A DNA stretch of 44,138 nt. Source: a virus. The notes beneath the pieces were generated by a model. That model was given only the letters and a program-made list of their open reading frames with translations, was not told where the DNA came from and ran no database searches. The translations under genes and the position numbers were made by a program. The stretch spans positions 1-44,138 of the IMG/VR virus record IMGVR_UViG_3300036785_000416. One strand, 5' to 3'. The first letter of the stretch is position 1. Every line of letters starts with the position of its first letter. Below, one piece after another: positions 5,497 through 43,200 of this stretch.

Positions 5497-5519
5497 TTTG
5501 GCTCACTCCGTTCGCCAAA
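5497..5519 (-). repeat. Loop-core hairpin (variant TCACTCCGTTC)
   Basis: Six-bp perfect arms (5497-5502 and 5514-5519) enclose an 11-nt variant core. One arm abuts the GTG start of the connector gene, so the structure could cover its initiation region. Confidence 0.7.
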
Positions 5520-5531
5520 GGGCAGCCGTCA

Positions 5532-5831
5532 TCAGACCGCCCGCCCCATCGCGATAAAGGCGTAGGTGTTGGCCGCACCGGTTGCCATTACCGTGATGCG
5601 CGGTGGGGGCGTCGTCTGAAAGTGCCCCGACACCACACTCAGTGCGTCCGCATACAACGCTGCGCTCCCCGCCGCACTCGCACTCACGAACTGACCGCTC
5701 AGCATCCCGTACCCGTACCGCCCATCCATCCTCGTCGGCTGCGGCGTATCCAGCACCACGGCACTCGCCGCTAGCGGGGCCGGTGCTCCATTGGAAGCTC
5801 TGGTCGCAGATGATTGGGAAGACGCTGCCAT
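5532..5831 (-). CDS. Small virion-associated protein, 99 aa
   Basis: ATG 5831 has a good AGGAG site. The sequence is Ala/Ser/Thr-rich and has few charged residues; it has an Ala/Ser-rich start and two beta-type segments (GYGMLSGQFVSASAAGS and RITVMATGAANTYAF). It has no signal peptide. It lies between the probable decoration protein and the connector. No family was recognised; a minor capsid or head-completion role is an inference from location. Confidence 0.65.
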   Translation of the reverse strand: MAASSQSSATRASNGAPAPLAASAVVLDTPQPTRMDGRYGYGMLSGQFVSASAAGSAALYADALSVVSGHFQTTPPPRITVMATGAANTYAFIAMGRAV

Positions 5832-5852
5832 CGCTCGCTCCTGTCGGACAAA

Positions 5853-6308
5853 TCAGTCGGGAAACATGGCGTACATCACGATCGGCGCCGTCACATTGAC
5901 GATGAAGCCGACCGCCACAGCCGTGACCGCCGCCGGGATCGTCACCGCCTTGTTCGCCGCTGCCAACGTGGTCAAGCTGTTGCCCACGGCACCCGCCCCA
6001 AACGCCGTGCTCAGCGTCACCACCCCCCTTATCTGCACCCACCCATACGTCACCGACCCGAGCGGGTGTGCCACTGGTGCGACACCAGCTCCCACTGGGC
6101 TCGTAGTGCTGTCCACCGTCGTCATCGTCTGATCCGTCATCACATACGAGCACACATCCCCCACGGCGGTCGCCAACGTCCCGCTGAACCGCACGTACTT
6201 CCACGCCGCATTGTAGTCAAAGCGGATCGCGCCCAAGTACTCCTGCGGCGACGTATCAATATCGGTGACCGCCGTAGTGAAGCCTTGCATCCTCCCTGGA
6301 TTAGCCAT
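5853..6308 (-). CDS. Probable capsid decoration protein, 151 aa
   Basis: ATG 6308 lies 11 bp after the major capsid stop and has a GGGGG site. The protein (MANPGRMQGFTTAVTDIDTS) is beta-rich with many small residues, Gly/Ala/Val segments and alternating polar/nonpolar stretches. Phage cement or head-fibre proteins often directly follow the capsid gene and share this composition. A family assignment such as DUF2190 is possible but not established. Confidence 0.65.
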   Translation of the reverse strand: MANPGRMQGFTTAVTDIDTSPQEYLGAIRFDYNAAWKYVRFSGTLATAVGDVCSYVMTDQTMTTVDSTTSPVGAGVAPVAHPLGSVTYGWVQIRGVVTLSTAFGAGAVGNSLTTLAAANKAVTIPAAVTAVAVGFIVNVTAPIVMYAMFPD

Positions 6309-6319
6309 CGCAACGCCCC

Positions 6320-7309
6320 CTAATTGGTGTTGATGGTGTCGAGCACGCCGAGCACCCGTCTTCGGCTTGTGACAAACGAGCACGCCAATTCGACTTGCGC
6401 GGCCTTGTCGTTGGGCTGATTGGGGATCGCCTTCCACTCCGTCATGTCGAAGAAGTACATCGGATCATAGTGAAATTCGATGAACCTCGTATTCAGGAAG
6501 TACATCCTCTGCACCATGCTCGGCGTCCAGACCATCGGTATCCCTTTGAACGTCTGGTTCTGGAACCCCGCATCCGCCAAGCGCGTGTTGGTGATCCGCA
6601 GCATCGGCAGCACCGTGTCCTCGTACTGCTCGTACGAGTTCATGTCGCTCACGATGATATCCGGCTGATCCATCGCCCTATTGTTCATGCACAAATTCAG
6701 CAGATGCCGCATATTCGAGATCCCATACACCGCGAACGACTGGCCCGCCATCCCGATCGCCTGGCTCTGCCACCACGTATACACGCTCGGATCAATCCCA
6801 CCCGCATTGAACGCCGGGCTCGCCACATTGGCGCTGTCGGGCACCATGAACTGCAACCCGTCGAACGACGGCGCCGGCAAATTAGCAGCGCCCGAGCCCC
6901 CGGTCAGCGTCGTCTCCAGATTGGTGATCAAGCTCTCCTCGGTATTATTGAGCTTTGCATTGACCCAGTTGATGATCTGCGCATCCCCCGAGTTCTGCTG
7001 CTCGTCCACCCCGTACCGCATGACGTTGGCCACGAGGTAGCGCCACTGGTACTGGCCCACCGTCAAGAACCGGAAGTCACTCAGATCCACCGTGCCGCCC
7101 CGGCTGATCCATTGCACCGTCGTGTTCGTTCCGTACTCCAGATTGACTTCGAGGAACCGGCCCCCTCGGGTCGAGCGGAGCTTGCCTCGGTCCTTCAGCC
7201 AAAACCAGAATGGTGTCGCACTAAAGATGTTATCAAAAACCCCAGGCAACCTCTTCTGCCAGGTCGTCGTGTAAAGGTCGTCCAGGGCTTGGGTAAAACT
7301 ATTTACCAT
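6320..7309 (-). CDS. Major capsid protein
   Basis: 329 residues. ATG 7309 has a strong GGGGGAG ribosome site at 7 nt. Segments such as VNSFTQALDDLYTTTWQKRL at the start, WISRGGTVDLSDFRFLTVG and YQWRYLVANVMRYGVDEQQN are typical of an HK97-fold capsid subunit family common in environmental podoviruses. The C-terminus includes KAAQVELACSFVTSRRRVLG. It follows the scaffold, with an HNH gene between them that overlaps its start by 7 bp. Function is assigned from recognised sequence pattern, length and synteny. Confidence 0.9.
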   Translation of the reverse strand: MVNSFTQALDDLYTTTWQKRLPGVFDNIFSATPFWFWLKDRGKLRSTRGGRFLEVNLEYGTNTTVQWISRGGTVDLSDFRFLTVGQYQWRYLVANVMRYGVDEQQNSGDAQIINWVNAKLNNTEESLITNLETTLTGGSGAANLPAPSFDGLQFMVPDSANVASPAFNAGGIDPSVYTWWQSQAIGMAGQSFAVYGISNMRHLLNLCMNNRAMDQPDIIVSDMNSYEQYEDTVLPMLRITNTRLADAGFQNQTFKGIPMVWTPSMVQRMYFLNTRFIEFHYDPMYFFDMTEWKAIPNQPNDKAAQVELACSFVTSRRRVLGVLDTINTN

Positions 7310-7782
7310 TGTTTATCTCCCCCAAAAAGTGTATCGAGATCCACACCACCACTTTCAGCCTCTTTCAAGCGCTGATAGCGTGCCTTGTCTCGATCACTAG
7401 CGCACTTCTTACACATGCGCTTCCCGACGTATGTGTAGTAGCTCCCCTCGACGTAGGGATGGCCTCTAGAACACTCGGTCGCCTTGATCGCCGCATAGGC
7501 CCGACGCATATTCTCGGTACGCGTCACCAGTTCCAAATGTTCCGGGTTAATGCACGTCCGGTTTCGGCAAAGATGGTCGATTTGCATCTCTCGCGGGACC
7601 GCACCGTACATCAAGATGTACATGACCCTGTGAACCACGCGGGCACCAGTCTGGTTAGGCGACACATACCCGTACCCAGTACTGTCCTTCGCTCCCTGCC
7701 AGATCAAGCAGCCATCCTGGTCAGCGACGGTTCTAGCTCGCAGGTAGGGTATAGTATAGAGTATCCTATCTCCGGGTTTCAT
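7303..7782 (-). CDS. HNH homing endonuclease inserted before the capsid gene
   Basis: 159 residues with DGCLIWQGAKDSTGYGY near residue 23 and an HNH core IDHLCRNRTCINPEHLELVT. A C-terminal treble-clef-like part has CSRGHPY and CKKCASDRDKARYQ. It lies between scaffold and capsid genes and its last codons overlap the capsid start, so the insertion keeps capsid translation coupled to upstream translation. Insertion beside a conserved capsid gene is common for such free-standing elements. Confidence 0.93.
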   Translation of the reverse strand: MKPGDRILYTIPYLRARTVADQDGCLIWQGAKDSTGYGYVSPNQTGARVVHRVMYILMYGAVPREMQIDHLCRNRTCINPEHLELVTRTENMRRAYAAIKATECSRGHPYVEGSYYTYVGKRMCKKCASDRDKARYQRLKEAESGGVDLDTLFGGDKQW

Positions 7783-7786
7783 TCAC

Positions 7787-8781: not shown

Positions 8782-8783
8782 CC

Positions 8784-9364: not shown

Positions 9365-9373
9365 GGCTCGCTC

Positions 9374-10844: not shown

Positions 10845-12614
10845 TCATCGTCTACCTGGACCCGGCACAAGATTTTGCACCGGGGTCGGCCTCGCTCCAC
10901 CTTGACCGCCACCAGCTCCACCACGCTGGCCCATCATCTGCGCCGCCTGCGCAAACGCCATCGGGTTCTGCTGGCTCGCACCGGGCTGGTTGGGATTGAC
11001 CAGCAGATGCGACGCATCCACCCCGTACATCTCATTCGCCAAAAAGCGTCTCAGCGCCATCTGATCGATCAGCGGATCGTTGTTCCACAACTGGAACAGC
11101 GCCATCGCCCGCTGCTCCCGCACCTGCTTCGTCAACGGTATCGAGGTGTCGGGATCGATCTTGATGTCATAGTCCAGATCTTGGATCAGCGCCGGCTGGA
11201 ACTGCACCCACAGTGGCAGGCCCTCCGGGCCTGCCACTTGTGCTACCATATCAGTGTCCCACCGCTCCGCGATGATGTGGTTCATGTCGCTGACCAGATA
11301 CGTCAACAGATCCGCGCACGCATCCCGCCTCTCGTCGATGCGGATCATGGTGGCTTGGTTGACGATATTCGCCTCCGTCGCGCTCCTATCAGCGGAGCCG
11401 GGCGCATATTCCCCGAACTGGTTGACGCCCATCCCCAGCAGCTCCTGAACTTCCCTATCGATGAACGCATCCATCTCCGGCAACGCCGTAGGCATTGGCG
11501 GCGCCTGGAACTCCTTCACCGCCGTCATCGATTTGACGCCAACCGCCACCCCGCTGTTGTCGTCCGCAGTCAGCTTCGACAGCTCATCCGGCGAAATCGC
11601 CCCGATCTCGTACAGCAGCTTGCACAACGAGATGCGCCGATGATACATCATCTGCGTCCGCACCTCGTTCTTCTCCATCTGCTGCGGCTCTAGGATCATA
11701 CTGTCCGGTATACCCCAAAACACCTCGTCGTCAGTATTGAAGCACAACGGATAGAAGTTTATACGCCTCTTAATCTGCAGATCATCCACCTCCCGGAACA
11801 ACACCTTCTTGTCCACGCTCGCATTGCTGTCGGGCGCCATCACGAACACCAGCCCACTCTTCTTATCACGAATTTCCCACAGTCGAATGCCCTCCACGTT
11901 CTTCTGGTACGGGCTCCCCTTCGCCAACAAGCTCGGGTGCTCACCCCACCGGCCCAGCATACCCTGCTTCAGATCCTGCTTGTTTTCAAAGCGAGGATCG
12001 TCGAGCACGTCGTCGATGGGTCGCACGCACTCGTAGCACACCCACCGAGCACTGTGGATATCAGTGCAATGAGCAGGCACCACGAAATTAGCGGGATGAG
12101 CAGCCAAAGCCCAAGGCGCGTTGGGATGAACCAGATCATTATATTCAACACGTCGCTGCAATCTCCTCCCCCCCGCATCCGGATCACTCGTCGAAAGCGG
12201 CTCCGGCGTCGGCGTGAACTCCGCCCCGTAGCCAAGTCTTATCCCAGCCGTTCCGAACATCGTGCTCCACTGCACCGCCCGCTTCATCTGCTCCTTGATG
12301 CCCATTGCGTCCAGCAGTGTGTTGTCGACGCGCTCGATCAGCTTCGCAAGTAATTGCATCTCAGGCCCCGGCTTTTTTGAAGTAATCGAAACACTAGGAT
12401 TTCTAAAATAAACACGCGGGATCAACGTCCGCACCATCTTAAAGTAAACATTCGAGGGCAGTATGCCTTTCCTCCACTCCCCCCGATACCACCTCCTCCA
12501 ATCCTGCCACCGGTCCTCCCGTGCGTACTCCCGCCTAAACTGCTTCCCCCTCTGCACCTCGTTGATCCACCACTGCGGAACGATGCTGCCCTTGTCGGTA
12601 TAACCGTCAGCCAT
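10845..12614 (-). CDS. Portal protein
   Basis: 589 residues. The N-terminal region ([20 protein letters not shown] then [13 protein letters not shown]), followed by [20 protein letters not shown] and a long helical C-terminal domain with [19 protein letters not shown], is typical of podovirus-like portals. The C-terminus is Gln/Gly-rich. Portals form the dodecameric gate for DNA. It is preceded by the large terminase, ATP-grasp and HAD genes and overlaps the HAD gene by 8 bp. No truncation is seen. Confidence 0.9.
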
Positions 12615-13080: not shown

Positions 13081-14385
13081 TCATTCGAGCCAGCCCCACT
13101 TCTTCAACTGCGCCACGTCTCGATTGACCCGCTCTCCAATGTCGTCCCGGTACTGCTTTCCGTCCACCTCGATACCCTCAATAGTACGGTAGACCCTTCG
13201 GCGCGCTTCGTAAGTATAATCCGGCTTATACCGCCGTCCATCAGGCGCCTGCTTATCTCTCTCAACACGGCCGATCGCCGTCGCCTTGAAGAGTAGTCCA
13301 TCAGCACCACCGGTTCGATATCGTCCATCCTCATCCCTCATTACATCGCACAGAAACAGGTGGTGCAACCTCGGCTCCTCGATACCCATGATCGGCTCCC
13401 CCCGCCAGCCTTCGGCTGGCACGTCGGGGTTCCTGAACGGATACGGCGGGATCGACACCCGCACTGCAATCATCACATCGTCCGTGAGCGGCATAGACCG
13501 AGCGACGCCAGCAGCTACGTCGGCGAAGAACGCTCCCGCCGGCTCCTCCAATCCTTCCAGCAGAGCCTCGACAGCATCAAATCCCATTCGGCTGGTCGCC
13601 TCCAGCGCATACGCCTGGTCTTCAGTGACGATCGCGTTCACGTCGAACGGTCCCCGATACCCGATCATCCGCAGCAGATCGCCCATCGGCTCCACCGTTT
13701 TGCGGGTCAGTCGATCCCCCTTCCCCGCGCCGATCACCACGTTCCCCATACACCCCGTGTTGCAACCCACCCCGCCGCTCATGAACCGCTTCTCCTCGAA
13801 CGTGTGGTTGAACGGCACGATCCAATCCCTTCCATTGAACCAGCCCTCCGTCGACACCTCGACGCCACTCACAACGCGCTGGATAATGCCAGTCGCATCC
13901 TGGGGGAGCTTTCCAGTCTGATGGTCCCATAGCGCCTCATCCTTCACCACTCTTGTCGTCGCAACGTCTCCGACGTCACTCTTCATGACCCACCCCGCGC
14001 CCCACGTGCCCTTCGGGCACGTCTTAGCTTCGGCGCGTCCTTTGAACGGGATCGTCTCGGGCACCGTCAAGCCCGCCCGCTCGAACATTTCCATGCCCAT
14101 CTGCCGGTCCCCCTCGATCTTGTCGAGGAGACTGCAGAACCCAATATACGGCCGATCCGCTTCGCGGATCGCTTCCTCGAACCTGCCAAATCCCACACAA
14201 TCGCACAGTATCACATCCGCGCTTCGCGCAGCTCTCTCCCAGCCCAGCGGCCGGTTGACGATGCCCCGACCCACCCTGGCGTACCGCTTCTCCTGTATCC
14301 ACAGATCGACCTCATTGCCCTCGTGCGCCAGCCGCTGCGCCACCCCCGCTCCATCTCCCCCTTTCGACATGATCAAGAAACGCAT
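13081..14385 (-). CDS. ATP-grasp enzyme (PurD-like)
   Basis: 434 residues from ATG 14385, which overlaps the terminase stop as TGATG. An N-terminal Rossmann-like part (MRFLIMSKGGDGAGVAQRLA) is followed by an ATP-grasp fold with IGFCSLLDKIEGDRQMGMEM, WVMKSDVGDVATT and GIIQRVVSGVEVSTEGWFNG, and a metal-binding end FDVNAIVTEDQAYALEATSR. Architecture resembles phosphoribosylamine-glycine ligase (PurD), but ATP-grasp carboxylate-amine ligases for other substrates share it. It sits between large terminase and portal, a surprising location for a purine enzyme. Ligation of an amino or carboxyl group to a nucleotide or protein is possible; the substrate is unknown. Confidence 0.8.
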   Translation of the reverse strand: MRFLIMSKGGDGAGVAQRLAHEGNEVDLWIQEKRYARVGRGIVNRPLGWERAARSADVILCDCVGFGRFEEAIREADRPYIGFCSLLDKIEGDRQMGMEMFERAGLTVPETIPFKGRAEAKTCPKGTWGAGWVMKSDVGDVATTRVVKDEALWDHQTGKLPQDATGIIQRVVSGVEVSTEGWFNGRDWIVPFNHTFEEKRFMSGGVGCNTGCMGNVVIGAGKGDRLTRKTVEPMGDLLRMIGYRGPFDVNAIVTEDQAYALEATSRMGFDAVEALLEGLEEPAGAFFADVAAGVARSMPLTDDVMIAVRVSIPPYPFRNPDVPAEGWRGEPIMGIEEPRLHHLFLCDVMRDEDGRYRTGGADGLLFKATAIGRVERDKQAPDGRRYKPDYTYEARRRVYRTIEGIEVDGKQYRDDIGERVNRDVAQLKKWGWLE

Positions 14386-15959
14386 CACCCAAATCGTTCT
14401 GGCCTCAAGGCCACCCGTTCGCGCACCTGCTGCTCCCCGAACAACGCATCCCAGCTGAATGGATCGCTTGTCGCTTCGCTCCAAGCGGCTTCATCCACTG
14501 CAGTGAGGATTTGGGCGCGTTCGATCACCGCCAATGCATGAACCATTGCCATCACCCGGTCGTCGAAGCACCCGCTCTCCGCCTCGATCTTCCCGTTCTC
14601 CTTCTCCACGAACGTCCCCAATTCCGACCGTAGCCCCTCACTATGAATGATGGCTTCGCCAGCAAGAAGCCTCCTCGCCGTCCCCAGCAGCAGCCCCCGG
14701 TTACCCTCGGTAACCAGCGTGCCGTAGTGCTCCAGCCGGCTGATGATATATTGCACGCTATCGGCGCCTCGCGATCCCTTGTGCAACAGGTGCAACGGAT
14801 ACGTCTCGGTGAGACGCTTGAGCGTCACACGGCCGTGATTATTGCGCTCCACGTTTATGTACGCTCCGTTAAAGCGTTGGCCGAGACTGTGTAAAACCTC
14901 GCCGAACTCGTGGGGCTCCCGGTATCCACTAGCCCATTCGGCGACCTGCTCCAAAGATTGGAGGCATACAACTTGGGCGACCGAGTTGTCTCCCCCAACA
15001 CCCCCTGAAACATCTGCACCCACCACGTACCGGAGCCCTGGCATAGGGTGGGGCTGAAGCACTCGTAACTCTCGACTTTCACGTGTCCAGCTAGTGCTAG
15101 AGCTGAAGCGGACATGCCGGAAGAACGAGAACCCCGTCGATTGGAAGCACTCGTCGAAGCTCGTCGGATGCTCTTGTCTGAACGCACGCAGATCCCCCTC
15201 GAAATCGACCTCTAGACGCTCTCGCCTCCATTGTAGAAACTCCGGGCTAACGCCCGTCGTTTCTACAAGCTGGGGCTCCTCCAGCTCCTCGCTGAGGTTT
15301 GCCATGAAGTGCTCGCGCTCGCTGTCAGACCCGAAAGGGATGACATTGTCGGACATCCCCTGACTGGGGAAGAAGAACAGTTGAAATCCTCGTCCCTCGC
15401 GGGCACGCACGCACTGCCGATGATACCAATTGCCAACACCATTCCCAGTGCTCTCCACCACGATCTCGCCGTGCTCTGCGGCTGGGAATATTCCCTTCGT
15501 GAACTCCTCCGGGTTCTCATAGAACGCCGCCTCACTCAAATGCAAATCGGTGATGTTGTCGCCCCGCCCGAACCTTCGGGCGCCCGCTGTGCCGATCCAC
15601 AACGACGAGCCCGTCTTTAGGAACGTGATCGCCTTCACACTGTCCGTGCCCAGCATCGGTTTCAAGGCGCCCTTGAGGTTGTTGAGAATGAACCTGGCGC
15701 GCCCGAGAAGGCGCGCCGAAGCATCCGTCTCGTGGCTGACGATGACGCATCGCCGGTTCTCCTCCGCCAAGCATTTGGCGACATACCGCGCCAACACGTA
15801 GCTCGATACCCCCGCACCCTGCCGGCCCTTCGGGATGATGTTCCGCCTGCCAAAGTTTTCATCCAGTACCACCTGCTGCGGCTTCAACTTGAAATCAACC
15901 GTCTCCGCCGCCCGATCGACGATCTGGAACATCGCCTCGATAAGCTGGCGATACTGCAT
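14385..15959 (-). CDS. terL: Terminase large subunit
   Basis: 524 residues from ATG 15959, which shares a base with the previous stop. Motifs: a Walker A-like IIPKGRQGAGVSS at about residues 41-53, Walker B ITDLHLSEAAFYEN, and nuclease elements RYVVGADVSGG, YINVERNNHG and FDDRVMAMVHALAV. It powers packaging and cuts concatemers with the portal. The upstream extension of the frame is rejected because it overlaps the previous gene and lacks motif content. Several palindromes lie inside the coding region (14465-14487, 15231-15268). The subtype (headful or site-specific) cannot be read from the sequence. Confidence 0.93.
   Translation of the reverse strand: MQYRQLIEAMFQIVDRAAETVDFKLKPQQVVLDENFGRRNIIPKGRQGAGVSSYVLARYVAKCLAEENRRCVIVSHETDASARLLGRARFILNNLKGALKPMLGTDSVKAITFLKTGSSLWIGTAGARRFGRGDNITDLHLSEAAFYENPEEFTKGIFPAAEHGEIVVESTGNGVGNWYHRQCVRAREGRGFQLFFFPSQGMSDNVIPFGSDSEREHFMANLSEELEEPQLVETTGVSPEFLQWRRERLEVDFEGDLRAFRQEHPTSFDECFQSTGFSFFRHVRFSSSTSWTRESRELRVLQPHPMPGLRYVVGADVSGGVGGDNSVAQVVCLQSLEQVAEWASGYREPHEFGEVLHSLGQRFNGAYINVERNNHGRVTLKRLTETYPLHLLHKGSRGADSVQYIISRLEHYGTLVTEGNRGLLLGTARRLLAGEAIIHSEGLRSELGTFVEKENGKIEAESGCFDDRVMAMVHALAVIERAQILTAVDEAAWSEATSDPFSWDALFGEQQVRERVALRPERFG
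14465..14487 (-). repeat. Loop-core hairpin inside terL
   Basis: Perfect 6-bp arms CGCTTG and CAAGCG flank core TCGCTTCGCTC near the 3' end of terL. Confidence 0.75.
15231..15268 (-). repeat. Composite palindrome inside terL
   Basis: Ten-bp perfect arms (15231-15240, 15259-15268) enclose a smaller hairpin CGGGC-TAAC-GCCCG at 15243-15256. Related GGGC-T(A/T)AC-GCCC cores occur at 27022-27035 and 33073-33092. Confidence 0.8.
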
Positions 15960-17864: not shown

Positions 17865-17887
17865 ATGATCTCGCTTCGCTCGATCAT
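17865..17887 (-). repeat. Loop-core hairpin 2 bp from the 634-aa start
   Basis: Perfect 6-bp arms ATGATC and GATCAT with core TCGCTTCGCTC. One arm contains the tailspike stop codon; the other abuts the next ATG. Confidence 0.8.
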
Positions 17888-19485: not shown

Positions 19486-19503
19486 CTCGCTTCGCTCGAT
19501 GAG
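19481..19503 (-). repeat. Loop-core hairpin containing the tailspike ATG
   Basis: Arms CTCATC and GATGAG (6 bp, perfect) surround TCGCTTCGCTC at 19487-19497. The start codon at 19485-19483 is in the first arm. Confidence 0.85.
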
Positions 19504-19604
19504 ATGCCGTATGCGGACGTACGCAATGCACGCATGCTCCAACGGGCTCGCTTCGCTCGCCCGAATACTTTACGCGTCACCGCGCGCATGTCTCGAATAC
19601 TTCG
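19486..19604. other. Leader region upstream of the tailspike gene
   Basis: This 119-bp gap holds two loop-core hairpins, a 14-bp copy of CACGCATGCTCCAA (19529-19542, also at 13028-13041), and two AAGTATTCG copies. A 35-codon ORF (19482-19589, minus strand) ending ATGA over the tailspike start is possible but has no clear ribosome site. The region may control tailspike expression. Confidence 0.5.
19543..19563 (-). repeat. Loop-core hairpin upstream of the tailspike
   Basis: Five-bp arms CGGGC and GCCCG around TCGCTTCGCTC at 19548-19558. Confidence 0.75.
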
Positions 19605-20029: not shown

Positions 20030-20044
20030 GCGGCCTTCGGCCGC
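20030..20044. repeat. TTC-loop palindrome
   Basis: GCGGCC-TTC-GGCCGC, perfect arms, 6 bp downstream of the small-terminase stop. It could pause transcription, but there is no following T run. Confidence 0.6.
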
Positions 20045-30469: not shown

Positions 30470-30471
30470 AC

Positions 30472-31095
30472 ATGCTCCTCTTCGTCGATTGTGAAACCAC
30501 CGGCATCCCCAACTTCAACCGCCCTTGGGACTGGTCCGAGCAACCTCGCCTCGTCCAGCTAGCCGCTTTGCTGGTCGCTTCGCTCCCAGCAAAGGACGGC
30601 GAGTACCAGCAGATCCGCGAACTCAACTACATCATCCGCCCCGCCGGCTGGACTATTCCCCCCAAGGTTGCCGCCATCCACGGCGTCACCACAGAGCGGG
30701 CCCTCGCCTTCGGCGTCCCACTCGATCACGCCATGTCCAAGTTTCAAGGCATGCTCGTCGATGCCGACGAACTCGGCGTCGGAGGCAAGATCATCGCCCA
30801 CAACCTCCAATTCGACACTCACATCCTACTCGCTGAACTTAACCATTGCGGCATGCCACTGGCCCCCTTCGGATTGCTCCGTCCTTTCTGCACCATGCGC
30901 ACCCTCACCAACAGGATGAGACTGCCCGGCGGACCACGAGGCGAATACAAATGGCCCACCCTCGACGAAGCTTGGAGGTTCATACACCCCGATCGGCCTC
31001 CGGCCGATCCTGCAGCACGCCATACCGCAATGGGCGACGTCGTCATGTGCCGCGACGTCTACCTCAGCGGCCTCGAACGCGGCTGGTGGCCATGA
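30472..31095 (+). CDS. DnaQ-like 3'-5' exonuclease
   Basis: 207 residues with LLFVDCETTGIPNF as Exo I (D6, E8), IIAHNLQFDTHILLAEL as Exo II and RHTAMGDVVMCRDVY as the Exo IIIepsilon HxxxxD. This is the DEDDh proofreading exonuclease family (DNA polymerase III epsilon-like). The polymerase fragment at 28168 has its own exonuclease domain, so this protein likely works separately, for example in DNA repair, degradation or RNA processing. A 9-bp-arm hairpin (30566-30594) lies within the gene. Confidence 0.9.
   Translation: MLLFVDCETTGIPNFNRPWDWSEQPRLVQLAALLVASLPAKDGEYQQIRELNYIIRPAGWTIPPKVAAIHGVTTERALAFGVPLDHAMSKFQGMLVDADELGVGGKIIAHNLQFDTHILLAELNHCGMPLAPFGLLRPFCTMRTLTNRMRLPGGPRGEYKWPTLDEAWRFIHPDRPPADPAARHTAMGDVVMCRDVYLSGLERGWWP
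30566..30594 (+). repeat. Loop-core hairpin with 9-bp arms, in exonuclease coding
   Basis: CTTTGCTGG and CCAGCAAAG flank TCGCTTCGCTC. It is the longest perfect arm pair in the family and lies wholly in codons. Confidence 0.8.
30991..31009. repeat. TCC-loop palindrome in exonuclease coding
   Basis: GATCGGCC-TCC-GGCCGATC, the same arms as the element at 27895-27913 with one loop change. Confidence 0.7.
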
Positions 31096-31102
31096 GGCTC
31101 GC

Positions 31103-31129
31103 CATGAGGCTCGCTACGCTAGCCTCATG
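31103..31129. repeat. Loop-core hairpin after the exonuclease gene
   Basis: Perfect 8-bp arms CATGAGGC and GCCTCATG with core TCGCTACGCTA. A second CATGAGGCTCG copy lies just upstream at 31091. Confidence 0.75.
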
Positions 31130-32501: not shown

Positions 32502-33235
32502 CCTTACCCAACATCCGCCGGACCATCGTCCCCGATCCGGGGATGGTACTGGTCGAGATCGACCTGAAGCAAGCCGACGCCCAGATCGTCGCATGGGCGA
32601 GCAACGATGAACCGCTCAAGTCGCTGTTTCGCCAGGGGGTTGATATATACACTGAACGACAAACCGGCATCTGGAGTGATCCAAGCCTGCCTTCATCTAG
32701 ACAGATCCGAAAGAACTGCATTCACTCCGTCAATTACGGAGCAGCATATCGTACTCTGGCCGAACGGTACGTGGGTACTGAAGCGGCCGCTCGCCACTTC
32801 ATCGACACTTGGTTCTCCCACCACCTCGCCATTCGCGAGTGGCAGCGCCGGATCGAGTGGGAAATGACCCAATCCCGTACCCCTTCGATCCGAAACATCT
32901 ACGGCTATCGCCGCCTATACGCCTGCCCCACCCCATTGACCCAGCCACTAGCGTGGTTGGGTCAATCTACCGTCGCCAGGGTGAACAAAGAAATGCTCTT
33001 AGCTCTCGCTACGCTCGAACCAACAGTTCAAATTCTCATGCCGCACCACGACAGCGTCCTTCTACAAGTCCCTGTCGGGCTTACGCCCGACATCTTTCCC
33101 AAGTTGCTTGAACTCTGTGCCATCACTGTCCCCTACAAGGATGATCCCCTTGTCATCCCATGTGACCTCAAATACAGCGACCAATCCTGGGGCGACATGC
33201 TAAGCTGGTCGCCGGAGGCGACCAATGCTGATTGA
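32498..33235 (+). CDS. DNA polymerase A palm and fingers (split polymerase, part 2)
   Basis: 245 residues from ATG 32498 (ATGA overlap). It begins LPNIRRTIVPDPGMVLVEID, the sequence that follows the LQNI motif in intact phage polymerases. Motif A has D22 and D27 (EIDLKQADAQIVAW), motif B has RQIRKNCIHSVNYGAAY (K72, Y80, G81) and motif C is PHHDSVLLQVP. All catalytic residues are present, so the enzyme may be active if the parts assemble. The 3' end overlaps the next gene by 11 bp. It lies 2.6 kb from part 1. Confidence 0.93.
   Translation: MTLPNIRRTIVPDPGMVLVEIDLKQADAQIVAWASNDEPLKSLFRQGVDIYTERQTGIWSDPSLPSSRQIRKNCIHSVNYGAAYRTLAERYVGTEAAARHFIDTWFSHHLAIREWQRRIEWEMTQSRTPSIRNIYGYRRLYACPTPLTQPLAWLGQSTVARVNKEMLLALATLEPTVQILMPHHDSVLLQVPVGLTPDIFPKLLELCAITVPYKDDPLVIPCDLKYSDQSWGDMLSWSPEATNAD
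33073..33092. repeat. GGGC-TTAC-GCCC palindrome in palm gene
   Basis: TGTCGGGC-TTAC-GCCCGACA with perfect 8-bp arms near motif C. Confidence 0.65.
33206..33224. repeat. GGA-loop palindrome ending at a start codon
   Basis: TGGTCGCC-GGA-GGCGACCA; the right arm ends one base before ATG 33225, so the start of the next gene is adjacent to a stem. Confidence 0.65.
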
Positions 33236-33593
33236 CATCCTCCCGATCCCCCACGAGCACCAACGCTACGACACCACTGGGGACTGGTTCATCAAGGACG
33301 GCCTCCTACACATCCGCCCCTCGTCGCTTAGCGACGATCGCCACACATTCCTTCTCGGCCTTCACGAACTAGTCGAAGCCGTCCTCTGTCTCAAGTGCGG
33401 CATCATCCAAGACGAGGTCGACGAATTCGATCTCGCTGCACTCGATCGAAATATCGAAGAACCAGGCGATGACCCAGCTGCTCCTTACCACCGGCAGCAC
33501 GTCATCGCCTCGATCGTCGAGCGTCTTGCCGCCGAGCTGCTCGGCGTCGACTGGAACGAGTATTCGGCAGCGGTCGATACACTAAAGAGGTAG
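33225..33593 (+). CDS. Conserved phage protein with HELVEA motif, 122 aa
   Basis: 122 residues. The sequence (MLIDILPIPHEHQRYDTTGD, then WFIKDGLLHIR) and LLGLHELVEAVLCLKCGI belong to a small family common in phage replication clusters. HELVE resembles a metal-binding HExxE element, but hydrolase activity is not shown. Acidic middle (DEVDEFDLAALDRN). Overlaps the palm gene by 11 bp. Confidence 0.75.
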   Translation: MLIDILPIPHEHQRYDTTGDWFIKDGLLHIRPSSLSDDRHTFLLGLHELVEAVLCLKCGIIQDEVDEFDLAALDRNIEEPGDDPAAPYHRQHVIASIVERLAAELLGVDWNEYSAAVDTLKR

Positions 33594-34923: not shown

Positions 34924-35131
34924 CGCCGGGCGAGCCTACTCCGCTCGGGCCAGGATGATCAAGGCGGCGAGCTAAGGCTCGCCCGCTCGCTACGCTCGCG
35001 GGCTCGGCGCTCGGCCTTGACATCCGGCCCTTCGCTCCGCAACCGCCCGACGGCGTCAATCCTAGGTTAAAGCTGCGCTTGGGCCTAAAGGCCCGCGCGT
35101 CAAGTGGACTCACCCACAAGGAACCCGCAGC
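34924..35131. other. Intergenic region with hairpins before the membrane gene
   Basis: The 208-bp gap contains a loop-core hairpin (34981-35003), a GGGCCT/AGGCCC palindrome near 35083-35096 and several CGGGC repeats. No promoter is clear. The two structures could serve to stabilise or end the upstream mRNA. Confidence 0.5.
34981..35003 (+). repeat. Loop-core hairpin in intergenic region
   Basis: GCCCGC and GCGGGC arms around TCGCTACGCTC. Confidence 0.75.
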
Positions 35132-35272: not shown

Positions 35273-37878
35273 GGCACTGCCGCCCTAGTAGCCGGATCGG
35301 TGACATCGACCTGCTCGACCGTTGGCGTTGGCTGCGCCGCCTGCACGCCTGCCCTCACCGCTGTTGCTGTCTTCCCTATAGCTCGCAACTCGATCTGCCT
35401 GATAGCCTTATCCAGTTCCGGGCTCCCCGGCCGCAACCTCGCTGCACTCCTCACTAGCGGCATCACATACGGCACTTCCCGCAGCGCATGAAACAGGTTC
35501 ATCGCTGCATGGACTGCAAACGGTGCGGCGATCAACCCAACCGCCTGCATCGCCCCCTTCAATGGCTCTCCCCTCAACGTGTGCTCCACCAGCCGCTCCC
35601 CACCAATAAACGGCAAGAAGCTCCGTGTCCCCCATACCATCAATCGGCCATGCCTGCTCGCAGAAGTCTCCGCCAATCTCTGCGCGATATTCGCCTCGCC
35701 TTCCAGCTCAGTCACCCGCGTTCGTCCCAGCATCGCAATCAGCCCATCCTTGCGGTCCCTGATGTATTTCGTGAACCGCTTCGTCGCCGTTGCATCGGGT
35801 GTCTTCCCCTTCATATCATCAGTCAGCGTATGCAGCATCTGCCACTCCACGACGCTCTTCATCTCCTCCTGCGCTCGTGGTCCCATCACCTTACCCATCC
35901 GCGCCATCAGCTCGGCGTCATTGGTCTTCAGCGCCTTCGACACCCGGTTGAAGAACCACGCATTCGTAAACAGGTTCTTTCTCCCCGCAGTCACCCCCGC
36001 CTCGATCTGCTGTGGCGTATACCGCCCAAACAAATCATAGATCGGCCCGATATTCTCCCGGAAGAACCTGTTTGCACGATCCGCATCCCGTAGGAACTCG
36101 TTCACGCTCATCCCGTGCTCGTCCGCCGCCTTCTTCGCCACATCAAGCAATGACTGTCCCAATGTTGCCAGCTGCCTCCTCGACTGTGGATCAGTCTCCT
36201 TCGTCCGCATCGCCCGATGCACCGCTTGCAGTGCGGCACTAAACCTGTCTGCTCCCACTGGCACGGCTTCGAACGGCGCTGGCGGCACTGGCGGCGTCAA
36301 ACCCATCTGCCGCGCCACCTGCTCCTTGGCTCCCGACGGGAAGCCAGGGGCTAGCTTGTCGAGGTTCTTCTCGTACGCCTCGCTATCCTTCCTATACTGC
36401 TCCACCGCCCTCGCATGGGCGTCCTTCCTCGCCTCGTGCGCAGGCAACCCCAACTCGTCCCTGACCTTGTTACTCGTCACGGTCGCCGACACGCCTTCCC
36501 TCCGGGCGGCACCTGGAATGGCGGCTGCCACTCCCTGTCCCAGCTCTTCCGGGTCAAACCCCTCGAACTCCTTCCCCGACACGTTCCGCAGCGTGTACAG
36601 CTTATTCTTTTCATCCCAGAGCCGCTTGTAGTGTTCCAGAAACGACTGCTTGATCTCGTTCACGCTCTTGCTGATCTGCCCTGCATTAGCCTGCAGCATC
36701 TGCAGGAACGCCTGCGTCGCCTCCTTATCGGCCAGATACCTCGTCCCCCACCCCACCGCCGCTCCAATCCCTTGACCCAATCCTCCAAATGCAGCCCCGA
36801 GCGCCCCTTCAAGCCCCCTATTTCCCTCATTGACATCCGGATGGAACGTCGTAGCTCCAGCCGCCGCCCCCACCGTGGCACCCCGCATAAACCTCGGAAG
36901 CGCACTGACCACAGCCCCTGCCGCCTCTCCCACCTTGGTCGCTGCCAGCAGCCCACTCGACGCCATGATCCCTGCGACCGTCCCTCCAATCTCTCCGACA
37001 GTACCGAACACCGGGTGCTTCCGACCCATCTCCAGCAGCCCCAGCCGCTCCTCCCAATCATTTACCTGCGCCGTGAACTGCCTTGCCATCTCCTCGTTGC
37101 TGGCCTGCAACGCCGTCTGGATCGGTCCCAGCACCAGGTTCGCAGCTCCACGTGCCGCCCCACCCATCAGCGCCGCTGACTGCTCCATGAACTCCGGCGT
37201 GTAGAACCCGCTCGGATCGATGCTCGATACCGCCTCGTCTTCCTCTTCCGGGTCCAGCTCGCTGCTCGGCCGACCATCGACGTACTTCTTCAGCCGGTCA
37301 TCGAGATCCGGCCCCGTGAGCCGCCTCTTCTCCGCCACCGACGCATCTGCCGGCACCCCCAGGTCCACACCAGTGAGCGAGCTTGCCTTCGCCAGATAGT
37401 TCTGCGTCTCCCTCGGCAGCTTCGCATAATCGCGCCCCCCCGCGATCCATTCGTCAGCCTTCCCCGGCCCCGAGTTGAATGCAACCAGGGAATCGGTCCA
37501 GTTCCCATACTTATCATATTGCTTTGCCAGATAAGCCCGCTGCCCCGCCGTAGCCTGTCCATAGTCGAGCCGATCCTTGACACCCACCTCCGCAGCCGCA
37601 GCAGCCCCAAGCCCGCTGATGATCCCCTTCTCATTGGGTCTGTAGTCACGGCCCTCCATCTGTTGTACTGCAGCCGACATATTATCGAGCGCCGTCTTGT
37701 CCCTCGGTGGTGCCACGGGAGCAGCTGTCACCCCGGCTTGGCGCGCAGTAGCGATCGCGGTGCTGGCTGCATCGCCCCTGGGCTTCCCGGCCTCCGGCAT
37801 CGTCACCTTCGGCGCAGTCTCGTCCACGCCCGCCTGCTTCAGGCGTGCATCTAGATCATCGAGTGACAGCTGCGCCAT
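35269..37878 (-). CDS. Internal virion protein with lytic transglycosylase domain
   Basis: 869 residues. An N-terminal segment with QMEGRDYRPN (possible catalytic Glu) and YLAKQYDKYGNWTDSLVAFN then SGPGKADEWI resembles the lytic-transglycosylase AYNAGPG fold used by T7 gp16-like proteins to pierce peptidoglycan during ejection. Long helical and Ala/Gly-rich regions follow, with a hydrophobic middle (about residues 240-370). The ATG is at the edge of a hairpin (37878-37900). Enzymatic function is inferred, not certain. This is the only peptidoglycan-active domain recognised here. Confidence 0.8.
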   Translation of the reverse strand: MAQLSLDDLDARLKQAGVDETAPKVTMPEAGKPRGDAASTAIATARQAGVTAAPVAPPRDKTALDNMSAAVQQMEGRDYRPNEKGIISGLGAAAAAEVGVKDRLDYGQATAGQRAYLAKQYDKYGNWTDSLVAFNSGPGKADEWIAGGRDYAKLPRETQNYLAKASSLTGVDLGVPADASVAEKRRLTGPDLDDRLKKYVDGRPSSELDPEEEDEAVSSIDPSGFYTPEFMEQSAALMGGAARGAANLVLGPIQTALQASNEEMARQFTAQVNDWEERLGLLEMGRKHPVFGTVGEIGGTVAGIMASSGLLAATKVGEAAGAVVSALPRFMRGATVGAAAGATTFHPDVNEGNRGLEGALGAAFGGLGQGIGAAVGWGTRYLADKEATQAFLQMLQANAGQISKSVNEIKQSFLEHYKRLWDEKNKLYTLRNVSGKEFEGFDPEELGQGVAAAIPGAARREGVSATVTSNKVRDELGLPAHEARKDAHARAVEQYRKDSEAYEKNLDKLAPGFPSGAKEQVARQMGLTPPVPPAPFEAVPVGADRFSAALQAVHRAMRTKETDPQSRRQLATLGQSLLDVAKKAADEHGMSVNEFLRDADRANRFFRENIGPIYDLFGRYTPQQIEAGVTAGRKNLFTNAWFFNRVSKALKTNDAELMARMGKVMGPRAQEEMKSVVEWQMLHTLTDDMKGKTPDATATKRFTKYIRDRKDGLIAMLGRTRVTELEGEANIAQRLAETSASRHGRLMVWGTRSFLPFIGGERLVEHTLRGEPLKGAMQAVGLIAAPFAVHAAMNLFHALREVPYVMPLVRSAARLRPGSPELDKAIRQIELRAIGKTATAVRAGVQAAQPTPTVEQVDVTDPATRAAVP

Positions 37879-37900
37879 CAGTCTCGCTTCGCTCGACTGA
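37878..37900 (-). repeat. Loop-core hairpin at the internal virion protein start
   Basis: Arms TCAGTC and GACTGA around TCGCTTCGCTC; the start codon's first base is in one arm. Confidence 0.85.
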
Positions 37901-37924
37901 TCAAAGTTTGAAACATGATGACTG

Positions 37925-41007: not shown

Positions 41008-42528
41008 TCACCCAGTACCGCCCATGCCGATTGCCGGCGGCTGTGGAGCCAGCACCTGCATCGGCACCCACTCGCCCTCGAACTCCGACCAGATCTCCAT
41101 CCACGTCATCCGGAAGCTCGGATCGTTGCCACTCAACCGCACCCGCAGGTACTCGCTGACGAACTGAAACGTCACCCCAGCCAGCGCCGCGAACCTAAAG
41201 TCGATCACATCCACAAACCGCCAGCTCCGCCCCCGATCCAAACTCACCTCTACACCAATGTCGAATGCCCCTTGACCTCGCACCAGCAATCGATCGAACC
41301 TGCTCAGCGTCCCGCCCTCGCCCACATCCTTCGTCTCCACGCTCCACCGAATGAGCTGCCCCCTGTCATCCGGCACCACGAAATCGTACTCCACCACCCC
41401 ACCCGGTCCCGCCAGCAGCACCCCGGGTGCGGCCGTATCCTCCTCGAACCGCATCAGCTGGCTTCCCGCGCTCAGCCACTGATCCGCAAACCGCCTCACG
41501 AACCACCCCGGCTTCCCTCCCAGCGCCAGCCTCAACACAGTATCCGGTATCGTGTACTCGCCCGTGGGGATGCCGATCCACACCTCATGCCAGTTCGCAA
41601 CGTACTGCGCCCAGATATTTCCCTTCGCCATCTGGTTCAGGTTGCTGGTCACGCTGAAATGCTGCTGCCAAATGTTATCCGCTAGCGGCTCCAGCGCATA
41701 ATCGCCCTTGTACGCATACACATTGAATGCGCCCACCACCACATGAATTGCAGGGGTCCGTGCGATCGTGATCGGGGCCACGCCCAGCACCGACTGCGCC
41801 CCATCCCCTTGGATCATGTACTCCCAGAACAGGATCTGGTTCAGTACCCCCAGATACGTCGCCCGCATGATCGACGTGTGTCGATAGAGGATGTACCACG
41901 ACCCCAGCGGGAACCCGCAATGGATATCATCATCCGTATCCAGCAGGTCATAGATCGCCTGTATCCCCGTATCGGCCCCCTCGATGATCGTCCTGATCGC
42001 CGTAGGCGATCCCGCATCGCTCGTCCTCACCCTCCTCGGGTGCCTTACCCCGCTCTCGGTCAATCCCTGCAGCAGCAACTGCTCGTGGAACACCCCCAGC
42101 GACCGGCACACGATATTGGGCACATCGAACGGCATCACCTTGAACTGACCCAAATAAAAGTAGAACACCGGATCGATGCCGTTGGTGATGATCACCCAAT
42201 CGAACGGCGGGTACGACACCATCGAAACCGGCGTATTCACCTCCCCATTCAGCGTTTGGTCGCTTCGCGACCAAGCTCCCTGAGTATCCAAATGGTAGGC
42301 TGCCTTCGTCGTAATCAGCACTGTATCCACGGTCCCATCCGAGTGATTGACCCGGAACACACTCTGCGGCGTGCCCTTGACACCTTCGGCGTCAAAAGCT
42401 CCCAGCGTCTTGTATCCGGTATCCACCCGCAGCTGGCCCTGCACCACAAACAAATTGACGATCGCCGGGCTCTCATTCGGCGCGATCTCGCTCGCACTCG
42501 CATTCGTATTCAGCCCCCCGTCGAGCAC
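41008..42528 (-). CDS. Tail hub/stabilisation protein
   Basis: GTG 42528 is preferred because AAGGAG lies 9 nt upstream; an ATG at 42633 would add 35 residues that overlap the zinc-ribbon gene. 506 residues, mainly beta (VLDGGLNTNASASEIAPNES, then AIVNLFVVQGQLRVDTGYKT), with a WD-like propeller pattern (DWVIITNGIDPVFYFYLGQF) and Trp-rich segments. It resembles P22 gp10-like DNA stabilisation or tail-tube proteins. Its placement between small genes and a GNAT gene agrees with a tail role. A loop-core hairpin (42558-42580) lies before the start. Confidence 0.7.
   Translation of the reverse strand: MLDGGLNTNASASEIAPNESPAIVNLFVVQGQLRVDTGYKTLGAFDAEGVKGTPQSVFRVNHSDGTVDTVLITTKAAYHLDTQGAWSRSDQTLNGEVNTPVSMVSYPPFDWVIITNGIDPVFYFYLGQFKVMPFDVPNIVCRSLGVFHEQLLLQGLTESGVRHPRRVRTSDAGSPTAIRTIIEGADTGIQAIYDLLDTDDDIHCGFPLGSWYILYRHTSIMRATYLGVLNQILFWEYMIQGDGAQSVLGVAPITIARTPAIHVVVGAFNVYAYKGDYALEPLADNIWQQHFSVTSNLNQMAKGNIWAQYVANWHEVWIGIPTGEYTIPDTVLRLALGGKPGWFVRRFADQWLSAGSQLMRFEEDTAAPGVLLAGPGGVVEYDFVVPDDRGQLIRWSVETKDVGEGGTLSRFDRLLVRGQGAFDIGVEVSLDRGRSWRFVDVIDFRFAALAGVTFQFVSEYLRVRLSGNDPSFRMTWMEIWSEFEGEWVPMQVLAPQPPAIGMGGTG
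42256..42274. repeat. TTC-loop palindrome in tail protein coding
   Basis: TTGGTCGC-TTC-GCGACCAA, perfect arms. A similar imperfect TTGACaCC-TTC-GGcGTCAA lies near 42380. Confidence 0.65.
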
Positions 42529-42557
42529 GGGCAGCCGCTCCTTCTTAACCTGCTCCT

Positions 42558-42580
42558 TCAGGCTCGCTGCGCTCGCTTGA
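42558..42580 (-). repeat. Loop-core hairpin 30 bp before the tail protein start
   Basis: Arms TCAGGC and GCTTGA pair with one G-T; the core is TCGCTGCGCTC. Confidence 0.6.
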
Positions 42581-42598
42581 GTACGTTGGGCATCCCTC

Positions 42599-42733
42599 TC
42601 AACAATGCTGGTCTGCATCACTGCGCTCGACATAAAGAGAATTACATGCAGGGCACACCACTGGTCCTATTGGGGCAGCCCATCGAAACCCGCACTGCAA
42701 GCATCTGTATATGATGCGGCGGGCCGTAATCAA
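42599..42733 (-). CDS. Small zinc-ribbon protein with TTG start, 44 aa
   Basis: TTG 42733 overlaps the previous stop as TTGA, the same coupling geometry as neighbouring genes. Residues 9-31 read YRCLQCG, then a 12-residue spacer and VVCPACN: two CxxC knuckles typical of a zinc ribbon. The end includes SERSDAD-like sequence from a partial loop core. It is too short for many gene finders. It may bind DNA or another virion protein. Confidence 0.75.
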   Translation of the reverse strand: MITARRIIYRCLQCGFRWAAPIGPVVCPACNSLYVERSDADQHC

Positions 42734-42942
42734 GTGGCTGCTCCGCTGGCATCAACCCAATGCCCCCCTTGCCACCACACCGGCACACCCAGCGTGACAT
42801 CGAAGAACATCTGCCCGATGAACAGCTGCACCACCGGCCGCTCCGCCGTCGTCCCCGTCTCGGGCAGCTGCAGCACCCGCAGCTGCGTCGTCAGCGCCAC
42901 ATCGAACGGCGTCGTCGGCACAGGAAGAGCTAACGTCCTCAC
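42730..42942 (-). CDS. Unknown small protein, 70 aa
   Basis: GTG 42942 overlaps the previous stop as GTGA. Beta-type protein with VVQLFIGQMFFDVTLGVPVW and a Trp-rich end (WWQGGHWVDASG). No family recognised. Part of a chain of very small virion-region genes. Confidence 0.7.
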   Translation of the reverse strand: MRTLALPVPTTPFDVALTTQLRVLQLPETGTTAERPVVQLFIGQMFFDVTLGVPVWWQGGHWVDASGAAT

Positions 42943-43145
42943 GGCACTATGCCGCTCACCGACATCAGCACCCGCCCATCGCTCGACGGCACCGCAGTCA
43001 CCGTCGCATTGACCTTTACATTGTGGTTCCGCGTCGTGTTGGTATTGTTGGTCACCCCCGTTGGTTGCGCTACCGCCCCCGGTATCACCTCGTGTATCCC
43101 GTCAATCGAATACCCACGAGGATTGAACACCGATATCGTCGGCAT
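42939..43145 (-). CDS. Unknown small protein, 68 aa
   Basis: ATG 43145 with GGGAGG upstream. The sequence starts MPTISVFNPRGYSIDGIHEV, then has an Asn/Thr-rich segment with TNNTNTTRNHN and a beta-rich end. The N-terminal FNPRGYSIDGI is reminiscent of short phage virion proteins. Unknown role. Confidence 0.75.
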   Translation of the reverse strand: MPTISVFNPRGYSIDGIHEVIPGAVAQPTGVTNNTNTTRNHNVKVNATVTAVPSSDGRVLMSVSGIVP

Positions 43146-43173
43146 TATTGCCTCCCTTCGGTCGGCAATAGCC

Positions 43174-43200
43174 TAATGGCTGAGCGAAGCGAAGCCATTA
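43174..43200. repeat. Loop-core hairpin between small genes
   Basis: Perfect 8-bp arms TAATGGCT and AGCCATTA flank GAGCGAAGCGA. The core is in the opposite orientation to nearby transcription. The arm overlaps the stop codon at 43198. Confidence 0.8.

What the first reader, a model, noticed from the sequence alone, without database searches (positions are those of the whole stretch)
5497..43200. At least 23 hairpins share an 11-nt loop core TCGCTNCGCTC but have unrelated, mutually complementary arms
Examples: 10808-10830, 13009-13035, 17865-17887, 19481-19503, 20480-20500, 27945-27967, 30566-30594, 31103-31129, 37878-37900 and 43174-43200. The core is constant or has one change; arms of 5-9 bp differ at every site yet pair. 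They occur in intergenic and coding DNA. At 13009, 19481, 20480, 27945 and 37878 the start codon lies in or against an arm. This suggests a replicating micro-element, or hairpins formed by template switching at the core, possibly used for translation control or mRNA processing.
Basis: seen in the sequence. Interest (0 to 1): 0.88.

Follow-up and report, generated by a model that had tools for sequence, protein, structure and literature searches.

The report
Strand-biased capped hairpins in a phage
This virus of bacteria carries about 35 short DNA hairpins whose stems are all different but whose tips share one unusually stable DNA fold, nearly all on the same DNA strand whichever way the genes run, which suggests that the folding of single-stranded DNA, not a shared sequence, created or maintains them.

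Summary
The window holds 21 exact TCGCTNCGCTC cores (about 0.5 expected). Sixteen have perfect arms of 5 bp or more, and about 25 hairpins are found when one-change cores or imperfect arms are allowed. Read on the other strand, the core is GAGCGNAGCGA: tandem G·A, two base pairs and a GNA triloop, the tip of the very stable DNA mini-hairpin d(GCGNAGC). Inner pairs covary, with caps GAACGGAGTGA and GACCGAAGGGA. A second class has only the C(GNA)G triloop.

In all there are 33 hairpins with stems of 7 bp or more (expected 0.36). GNA lies on the minus strand in 29 of 33, equally in plus-gene and minus-gene regions, so orientation follows the DNA strand, not transcription. Fourteen of 19 GA-capped hairpins lie between genes; 13 of 14 plain ones lie inside genes. 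A 96.5% identical relative keeps 16 of 23 sites letter for letter, lacks several, and at one site has different but still complementary arms. More distant relatives almost lack them.

Best reading: DNA-level fold-back hairpins on one strand, with arms written by replication template switching. What multiplied the GA cap is unsolved. They are not T4 CUUCGG hairpins, REPs or proven N4-type promoters.

The parts
5496..5520 (-). GA-capped hairpin, cap GAACGGAGTGA (covarying inner pairs), 7-bp arms, at the GTG start of ORF 4732-5496
   Evidence: identical in L264
10766..10793 (-). core with imperfect arms; in L009 the same core has different arms that still pair; start codon GTG here, ATG in L009
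10808..10830 (-). GA-capped hairpin, cap GAGCGTAGCGA; absent from L009
13009..13035 (-). GA-capped hairpin, 8-bp arms; start ATG 13011 in the 3' arm
14465..14487 (-). GA-capped hairpin inside the terminase C-terminal coding sequence; L009 has unrelated sequence
17803..17825 (-). GA-capped hairpin in coding sequence
17865..17887 (-). GA-capped hairpin just upstream of the likely start ATGCGTGTT (signal-peptide-like N-terminus)
19481..19503 (-). GA-capped hairpin with start ATG 19485 in the 3' arm
19543..19563 (-). GA-capped hairpin, intergenic
20480..20500 (-). GA-capped hairpin at start ATG 20481
20522..20542 (-). GA-capped hairpin, intergenic
20952..20976 (-). GA-capped hairpin, intergenic; L009 has the covarying cap GAGTGAAACGA and no Watson-Crick arms
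24012..24036 (-). GA-capped hairpin, cap GAACGGAGTGA; stop codon TAA of the + gene 23392-24015 in one arm
27945..27967 (+). GA-capped hairpin of opposite orientation, at the ATG of the small + gene 27967-28164
28772..28794 (-). GA-capped hairpin inside the DNA polymerase gene
30566..30594 (-). GA-capped hairpin, 9-bp arms, inside the exonuclease gene 30409-31095
31103..31129 (-). near-cap TAGCGTAGCGA, 8-bp arms; 5' arm plus half core duplicated just upstream (CATGAGGCTCGC twice, 31091-31114)
33426..33450 (-). near-cap GAGTGCAGCGA, 7-bp arms, in coding sequence
34981..35003 (-). GA-capped hairpin between converging genes
37877..37901 (-). GA-capped hairpin overlapping start ATG 37878
43146..43170 (-). 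GA-capped hairpin, cap GACCGAAGGGA (covarying), directly upstream of ATG 43145
43173..43201 (+). GA-capped hairpin, 9-bp arms, opposite orientation to its neighbour
11212..11238 (-). plain C(GGA)G hairpin, 12 bp, inside the portal gene in columns aligned without a gap in nearly all relatives
13404..13420 (-). plain C(GAA)G hairpin, coding; a gap-bearing stretch in relatives
14004..14022 (-). plain C(GAA)G hairpin, coding
14153..14171 (-). plain C(GAA)G hairpin, coding
20030..20044 (-). plain C(GAA)G hairpin, 6 bp
23970..23984 (-). plain C(GAA)G hairpin, 6 bp
27314..27336 (-). plain C(GAA)G hairpin, 10 bp, at the end of gene 27069-27317
27854..27872 (-). plain C(GGA)G hairpin, coding
27895..27913 (-). 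plain C(GAA)G hairpin, coding
28133..28149 (-). plain C(GAA)G hairpin
29070..29086 (-). plain C(GAA)G hairpin in the DNA polymerase gene
29338..29354 (-). plain C(GAA)G hairpin in the DNA polymerase gene
30991..31009 (-). plain C(GGA)G hairpin, coding
33206..33224 (+). plain C(GGA)G hairpin, opposite orientation
41995..42011 (+). plain C(GTA)G hairpin, opposite orientation; in L264 the 5' arm is identical and the loop and 3' arm differ (template-switch pattern)
42256..42274 (-). plain C(GAA)G hairpin, coding; absent from L264

Best explanation
The hairpins are a DNA-level, shape-defined set. When the minus strand is single-stranded during replication (or extruded by supercoiling), a C(GNA)G triloop, often reinforced by a tandem G.A step (GA..GA), folds back on itself. 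The folded 3' end is then extended on its own strand before returning to the normal template. That template switch makes or repairs one arm as the reverse complement of the other, so arms are perfect yet unrelated between sites. Shown here: the shared shape with covarying caps, the excess over chance, the DNA-strand rule, the triloop register, absence of insertions at most of the aligned coding sites, and one polarised arm-rewriting event. Inferred: that fold-back synthesis wrote the arms generally, and that the minus strand is the leading-type strand. Not explained by this alone: why the GA..GA cap recurs. Fold-back copying would turn GA into TC, so the cap must be kept or spread by selection for the folded structure; I think it most likely kept as a tolerated or mildly useful DNA hairpin in short spacers between genes.
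For: (1) Structure, not sequence: GA-XY-GNA-Y'X'-GA with covarying XY, and a cap GAGTGAAACGA in L009 at 20952, which also recurs with arms in unrelated viruses. In 739 cores from unrelated viral and bacterial DNA the flanking bases pair in 75% and 70%, and the closing pair is pyrimidine-purine far more often than the reverse (T-A 54 versus A-T 7; 81 versus 11), as expected for sheared tandem G.A in a 5'-Py-GA-Pu context (established knowledge). (2) 33 hairpins with stems of 7 bp or more versus 0.36 in codon-preserving shuffles. (3) GNA on the minus strand in 29 of 33 (p = 1e-5), 17:2 near minus genes and 12:2 near plus genes, while gene sense is 19:14 (p = 0.49). The minus strand is the G-rich strand in every 2-kb bin whatever the gene direction. 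(4) Plain hairpins are in triloop register, C(GNA)G, the stable DNA form, not the C(UUCG)G tetraloop register. (5) Coding hairpins in the polymerase and portal overlie aligned columns without insertion. (6) 41995: 5' arm identical in L264, loop and 3' arm rewritten, the window's Ser derived against Asn/Asp in relatives; 10766: different arms, still complementary, same core. (7) Literature: template switching can create and fix hairpin stems, with stable loops as the likely nucleus (PMC8794818), and it is more frequent on the leading strand in E. coli (PMC6357072).
Against: Fold-back copying cannot write the GA..GA mismatch or explain 21 cores where 0.55 are expected, so selection or copying of the cap is needed. 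GA-capped hairpins are concentrated between genes (14 of 19, p = 2e-8) and about ten touch start codons with GNA on the sense strand, including the one plus-strand case 27945, which looks functional and partly RNA-compatible. Only one arm-rewriting event is cleanly polarised. The leading-strand assignment rests on GC skew alone. Part of the strand bias could follow from the C-rich plus strand (the null gives about 0.48 to 0.32 at order 1).
Confidence: 0.42

Rival explanations
1. mRNA-level intercistronic hairpins, analogous to the T4 CUUCGG hairpins: a super-stable cap with free arms, selected in transcripts at gene junctions to gate translation starts, process or stabilise mRNA.
For: GA-capped hairpins are intergenic in 14 of 19 cases, and start codons lie in or against the 3' arm at about ten sites, all with GNA on the sense strand, including 27945 on the plus strand. 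The RNA fold of the GNA strand is about 2.4 kcal/mol better than its complement. At 10766 window and L009 have different arms and different start codons but the same hairpin-start geometry.
Against: Orientation follows the DNA strand (29:4), not gene sense (19:14). In the T4 yardstick all 8 CUUCGG hairpins are sense to an adjoining gene and in tetraloop register, with no C(GNA)G triloop hairpin in 62 kb. The window has only 3 UUCG tetraloop hairpins. Thirteen of 14 plain hairpins lie inside coding sequence.
Confidence: 0.27
2. Functional ssDNA or cruciform sites: a phage or host protein recognises the GNA-capped hairpin extruded from one strand, irrespective of arms, as the N4 virion RNA polymerase does at its promoters or a primase or Rep protein at origins.
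For: N4 promoters need exactly a C-G closing pair and G..A in the triloop for extrusion, and only one strand's loop is stable (PMC4496689). Here the same apex, one-strand rule and gene-junction placement recur.
Against: No T7/N4-type RNA polymerase was found, though that search's controls were silent, and no ORF is vRNAP-sized. Orientation does not follow the template strand of neighbouring genes. Many copies lie in mid-gene. Relatives with the same structural genes lack them.
Confidence: 0.15
3. A mobile micro-element (REP-like or a new kind) whose 11-nt cap is copied to new sites and whose arms are regenerated from local sequence.
For: Lineage-specific burst: about 476 cores per Mb here, against roughly 0-50 per Mb in 120 sampled bacterial genomes, with hairpins almost absent from MCP relatives. 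The same cap is the centre of REP-like repeats with fixed arms in bacteria. Close relatives differ in presence and absence.
Against: Arms are unrelated and no flanking unit is shared. Aligned coding hairpins are mostly not insertions. No Y1 transposase in the record, with a control that rang in five genomes.
Confidence: 0.11
4. Ordinary chance or compositional effect.
For: The plus strand is C-rich, which favours TCGCTNCGCTC over its complement.
Against: Expected 0.36 hairpins against 33 in composition- and codon-matched sequences; 0-1 in seven other phage genomes, four of them at GC 0.59-0.68.
Confidence: 0.01

Closest known systems
T4 CUUCGG hairpins (Tuerk et al. 1988, cited in PMC8948821)
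   Same: Constant super-stable loop, free complementary arms, many copies in one phage genome, mostly between genes for the GA-capped class.
   Different: DNA-type GNA triloop with tandem G.A instead of the RNA UUCG tetraloop; orientation fixed to a DNA strand instead of gene sense; a second class inside genes.
Bacteriophage N4 virion RNA polymerase promoters (PMC4496689)
   Same: C-G closed GNA triloop hairpin on one DNA strand; arms free as long as they pair.
   Different: No N4-type polymerase found; tens of copies; no fixed relation to gene starts or template strand; cap with G.A tandem.
REP elements of RAYT transposases (PMC2817692) and related fixed-arm repeats such as GTCATTGC-GAGCGNAGCGA
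   Same: Same GCGNAGC apex; the exact core GAGCGNAGCGA occurs as the centre of repeats with fixed arms in some bacteria.
   Different: Here no conserved head, no shared arms, no transposase, and mostly no insertion at aligned coding sites.
Quasipalindrome template-switch mutations (PMC8794818, PMC6357072)
   Same: Local reverse-complement arm writing, strand bias, stable loops as nucleus.
   Different: Known cases are single mutation events; here tens of hairpins share one apex in one phage.
d(GCGNAGC) extraordinarily stable DNA mini-hairpins (Hirao et al. 1994, cited in PMC11292364)
   Same: The apex of every hairpin counted is the C(GNA)G triloop; most GA caps contain GCGNAGC itself.
   Different: Known mainly as a physical-chemistry motif and an aptamer add-on.

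Membership tests
T4-type CUUCGG hairpins | C(UUCG)G tetraloop register | tested here: not met
   14 C(GNA)G triloop hairpins of 7 bp or more against 3 UUCG tetraloop hairpins
T4-type CUUCGG hairpins | stable loop on the gene-sense strand | tested here: not met
   GNA sense 19 of 33; T4 control 8 of 8 sense, counting the one after gene 23 with gene 23
T4-type CUUCGG hairpins | intergenic placement | tested here: inconclusive
   met for GA-capped (14 of 19), not met for plain (1 of 14)
N4 vRNAP promoters | C-G closing pair and G..A triloop on one strand | tested here: met
   requirement
N4 vRNAP promoters | N4/T7-type RNA polymerase encoded by the phage | tested here: inconclusive
   no PF00940 match, but the control genomes did not ring; no vRNAP-sized ORF
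N4 vRNAP promoters | hairpin on the template strand upstream of transcripts | tested here: not met
   no relation to gene strand
REP elements / RAYT | conserved arms and GTAG/GTGG-type head in many copies | tested here: not met
   arms and flanks unrelated
REP elements / RAYT | Y1 tyrosine transposase in cis | tested here: not met
   no PF01797 match, control rang in 5 genomes; a host enzyme in trans cannot be tested, host unknown
Quasipalindrome template switching | new arm is the reverse complement of an unchanged neighbouring arm | tested here: inconclusive
   clear at 41995, suggestive at 14465, not resolvable elsewhere
Quasipalindrome template switching | strand bias towards the leading strand | tested here: inconclusive
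   strong strand bias; leading strand inferred only from GC skew
Intrinsic terminators | T-run directly after the hairpin | tested here: not met
   bases following the GA-capped stems contain no T-run

The most novel reading that the evidence does not exclude
An 11-nt folded cap (GA-GC-GNA-GC-GA) is itself the unit that spreads or is selected. Some phage or host replication or repair enzyme acts on the capped fold-back on one strand and regenerates arms from whatever sequence lies beside it, so a 'repeat' is conserved only as a DNA shape.
Probability: 0.17. Interest if true: 0.9.

Novelty: new variant of a known kind. Interest (0 to 1): 0.62.

Why it matters
A genome with tens of hairpins sharing only a cap shape, oriented by DNA strand and partly polymorphic between near-identical relatives, is a natural test bed for how perfect stems arise. 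It would let template switching, selection on DNA folding and RNA function be separated directly. The same cap recurs in unrelated viruses, bacteria and archaea with the pyrimidine-purine rule of sheared G.A pairs, which suggests a general and little-noticed DNA structural element.

Tried and rejected
Rfam: no RNA family in the window. RNA-only explanation: weakened by the strand test and the T4 yardstick. REP copies: arms and flanks differ, no Y1 transposase. Intrinsic terminators: no T-run. A simple insertion model fails at most of the aligned coding sites. Searches for relatives with the polymerase, primase, tail and exonuclease genes found none in IMG/VR, so birth and loss could be followed only at 23 sites. 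The cap GAACGNAGTGA is not generally enriched in 60 bacterial genomes; one genome carries 40 copies. Literature searches for the cap sequence returned mostly primers and unrelated sequence; the one natural site I read was the terminal repeats of Methanosarcina spherical virus. My first gene model, trained mainly on minus genes, miscalled the plus region and was replaced. The host was not identified, so no host comparison was possible.
Full report
Observation. The window is a virus record of 44,138 bases with tail, head, terminase, DNA polymerase and primase genes: minus-strand genes to about 20.5 kb, plus-strand genes to about 35 kb, then minus again. It holds 21 exact TCGCTNCGCTC cores, 19 on + and 2 on -. 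Sixteen have perfect arms of 5-9 bp directly against the core; with covarying or one-change caps and imperfect arms there are about 25 hairpins.

What the core is. On the other strand the core reads GAGCGNAGCGA, that is GA, two bases, a GNA triloop, two bases complementary to the first two, GA: the mini-hairpin d(GCGNAGC) on a tandem G.A step. A search by shape, GA-XY-GNA-Y'X'-GA with arms, finds 19 hairpins, three with covarying inner pairs (GAACGGAGTGA at 5503 and 24019, GACCGAAGGGA at 43153). A close relative has GAGTGAAACGA at one site, and that variant recurs with arms in unrelated viruses. Allowing the C(GNA)G apex without the G.A step adds 14 more with stems of 7 bp or more; 14 of the 21 triloop hairpins of that stem length have this apex.

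Chance. Codon-preserving gene shuffles with a first-order spacer model give 0.105 GA-capped and 0.25 plain hairpins against 19 and 14 observed, and 0.55 bare cores against 21. Other phages with homologous polymerase or capsid genes have 0-1, four of them at GC 0.59-0.68, and 389 kb of capsid-gene relatives hold 11; those relatives hold a single exact core, L264 aside.

DNA strand, not gene sense. Of 33 hairpins 29 have GNA on the minus strand (p = 1e-5): 17:2 near minus genes and 12:2 near plus genes. With respect to the nearest gene it is 19:14 (p = 0.49). The minus strand is G-rich in every 2-kb bin regardless of gene direction. As a yardstick, 62 kb of T4 has 8 CUUCGG tetraloop hairpins, all sense to an adjoining gene, and no C(GNA)G triloop hairpins, whereas the window has 3 tetraloop hairpins. 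The window's set is therefore of the DNA type.

Placement. GA-capped hairpins lie between genes in 14 of 19 cases (p = 2e-8); plain ones lie in genes in 13 of 14 (the gene model is my own and approximate). About ten GA-capped hairpins touch a start codon with the 3' arm. In the polymerase and portal the coding hairpins overlie aligned columns without insertion, while 13404 lies in a gap-bearing stretch.

Birth and loss. L009 and L264 come from one metagenome sample and appear to belong to one close relative (95.8-97.9% identical over most of their length). At 23 compared places 16 are letter-identical and 7 differ. At 10766 the same core carries different arms that still pair. At 41995 the 5' arm is unchanged while loop and 3' arm are rewritten in the window, and the resulting serine is derived, since relatives have Asn or Asp there. 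At 9367-9397 L009 has a cap where the window has a longer loop. These are the kinds of change expected from template switching, but only one case is cleanly polarised.

Wider occurrence. Paired cores occur in more than 100 viral and more than 100 genome stretches (scans stopped at their limits). Flanking bases pair in 75% and 70% of cores, with C-G and T-A closing pairs strongly preferred over G-C and A-T, the rule expected for sheared tandem G.A. In sampled Pseudomonadota and Actinomycetota genomes the core is usually near its control frequency, with a few enriched genomes. One of these, read directly, has fixed-arm REP-like repeats GTCATTGC-GAGCGNAGCGA. No bacterial genome sampled approached the density seen here (about 476 per Mb).

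Mechanism. I favour fold-back template switching on one strand, nucleated by the GNA cap. The literature supports each step separately: stems created and fixed by template switching, stable loops as nuclei (PMC8794818), leading-strand bias (PMC6357072), and one-strand extrusion of C(GNA)G hairpins (PMC4496689). The weak point is that copying cannot write the GA..GA mismatch, so the recurrence of the GA cap needs selection or spread. An mRNA role for the start-codon subset stays open.

Verdict. A real, strong, lineage-restricted feature; a new variant of known kinds of capped hairpins, with a DNA-strand rule I have not found described.

Noticed in passing
window 28168-29880 and 32366-33235: The family A DNA polymerase is split in two ORFs about 2.5 kb apart; related phages have it in one ORF of about 780 aa. 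The gap begins with an HNH-endonuclease-like peptide (ENGCWIWQG, about 29940) and holds an exonuclease-like gene (30409-31095), suggesting an intron or homing-endonuclease insertion.
   Followed up: partly
window 31091-31114: Perfect tandem duplication of CATGAGGCTCGC, the 5' arm plus half of the hairpin core, directly before the hairpin at 31103-31129; looks like a replication slip at the hairpin.
   Followed up: no
window 1-44138: GC skew is negative in every 2-kb bin (-0.02 to -0.27) although gene direction changes twice, pointing to a replication-strand asymmetry.
   Followed up: partly
window 21757-21790: A 13-bp-arm inverted repeat (GCTGTAGGGGCCA-GCCCGGCT-TGGCCCCTACAGC) near the border of the divergent operons, partly altered in L009; possible origin or terminator.
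   Followed up: no
L112 11193-12198: An unrelated viral contig has four GAGCGGAGCGA caps within 1 kb with different complementary arms (AGGGC/GCCCT, AGCAC/GTGCT, AGACC/GGTCT, GGC/GCC), a second example of fixed cap and changing arms.
   Followed up: partly
L289-L304: Pseudomonadota genomes carry many REP-like repeats GTCATTGC-GAGCGNAGCGA-(A)GCAA, some with a second nested GA..GA step (GCGAG-GAGCGNAGCGA-CGAAGC), often as inverted pairs about 70 bp apart.
   Followed up: partly
window 28875-28906: 11-bp-arm hairpin in the polymerase gene with loop GAGCTTGCGA on the minus strand: the same GA..GA step over a different tip.
   Followed up: no
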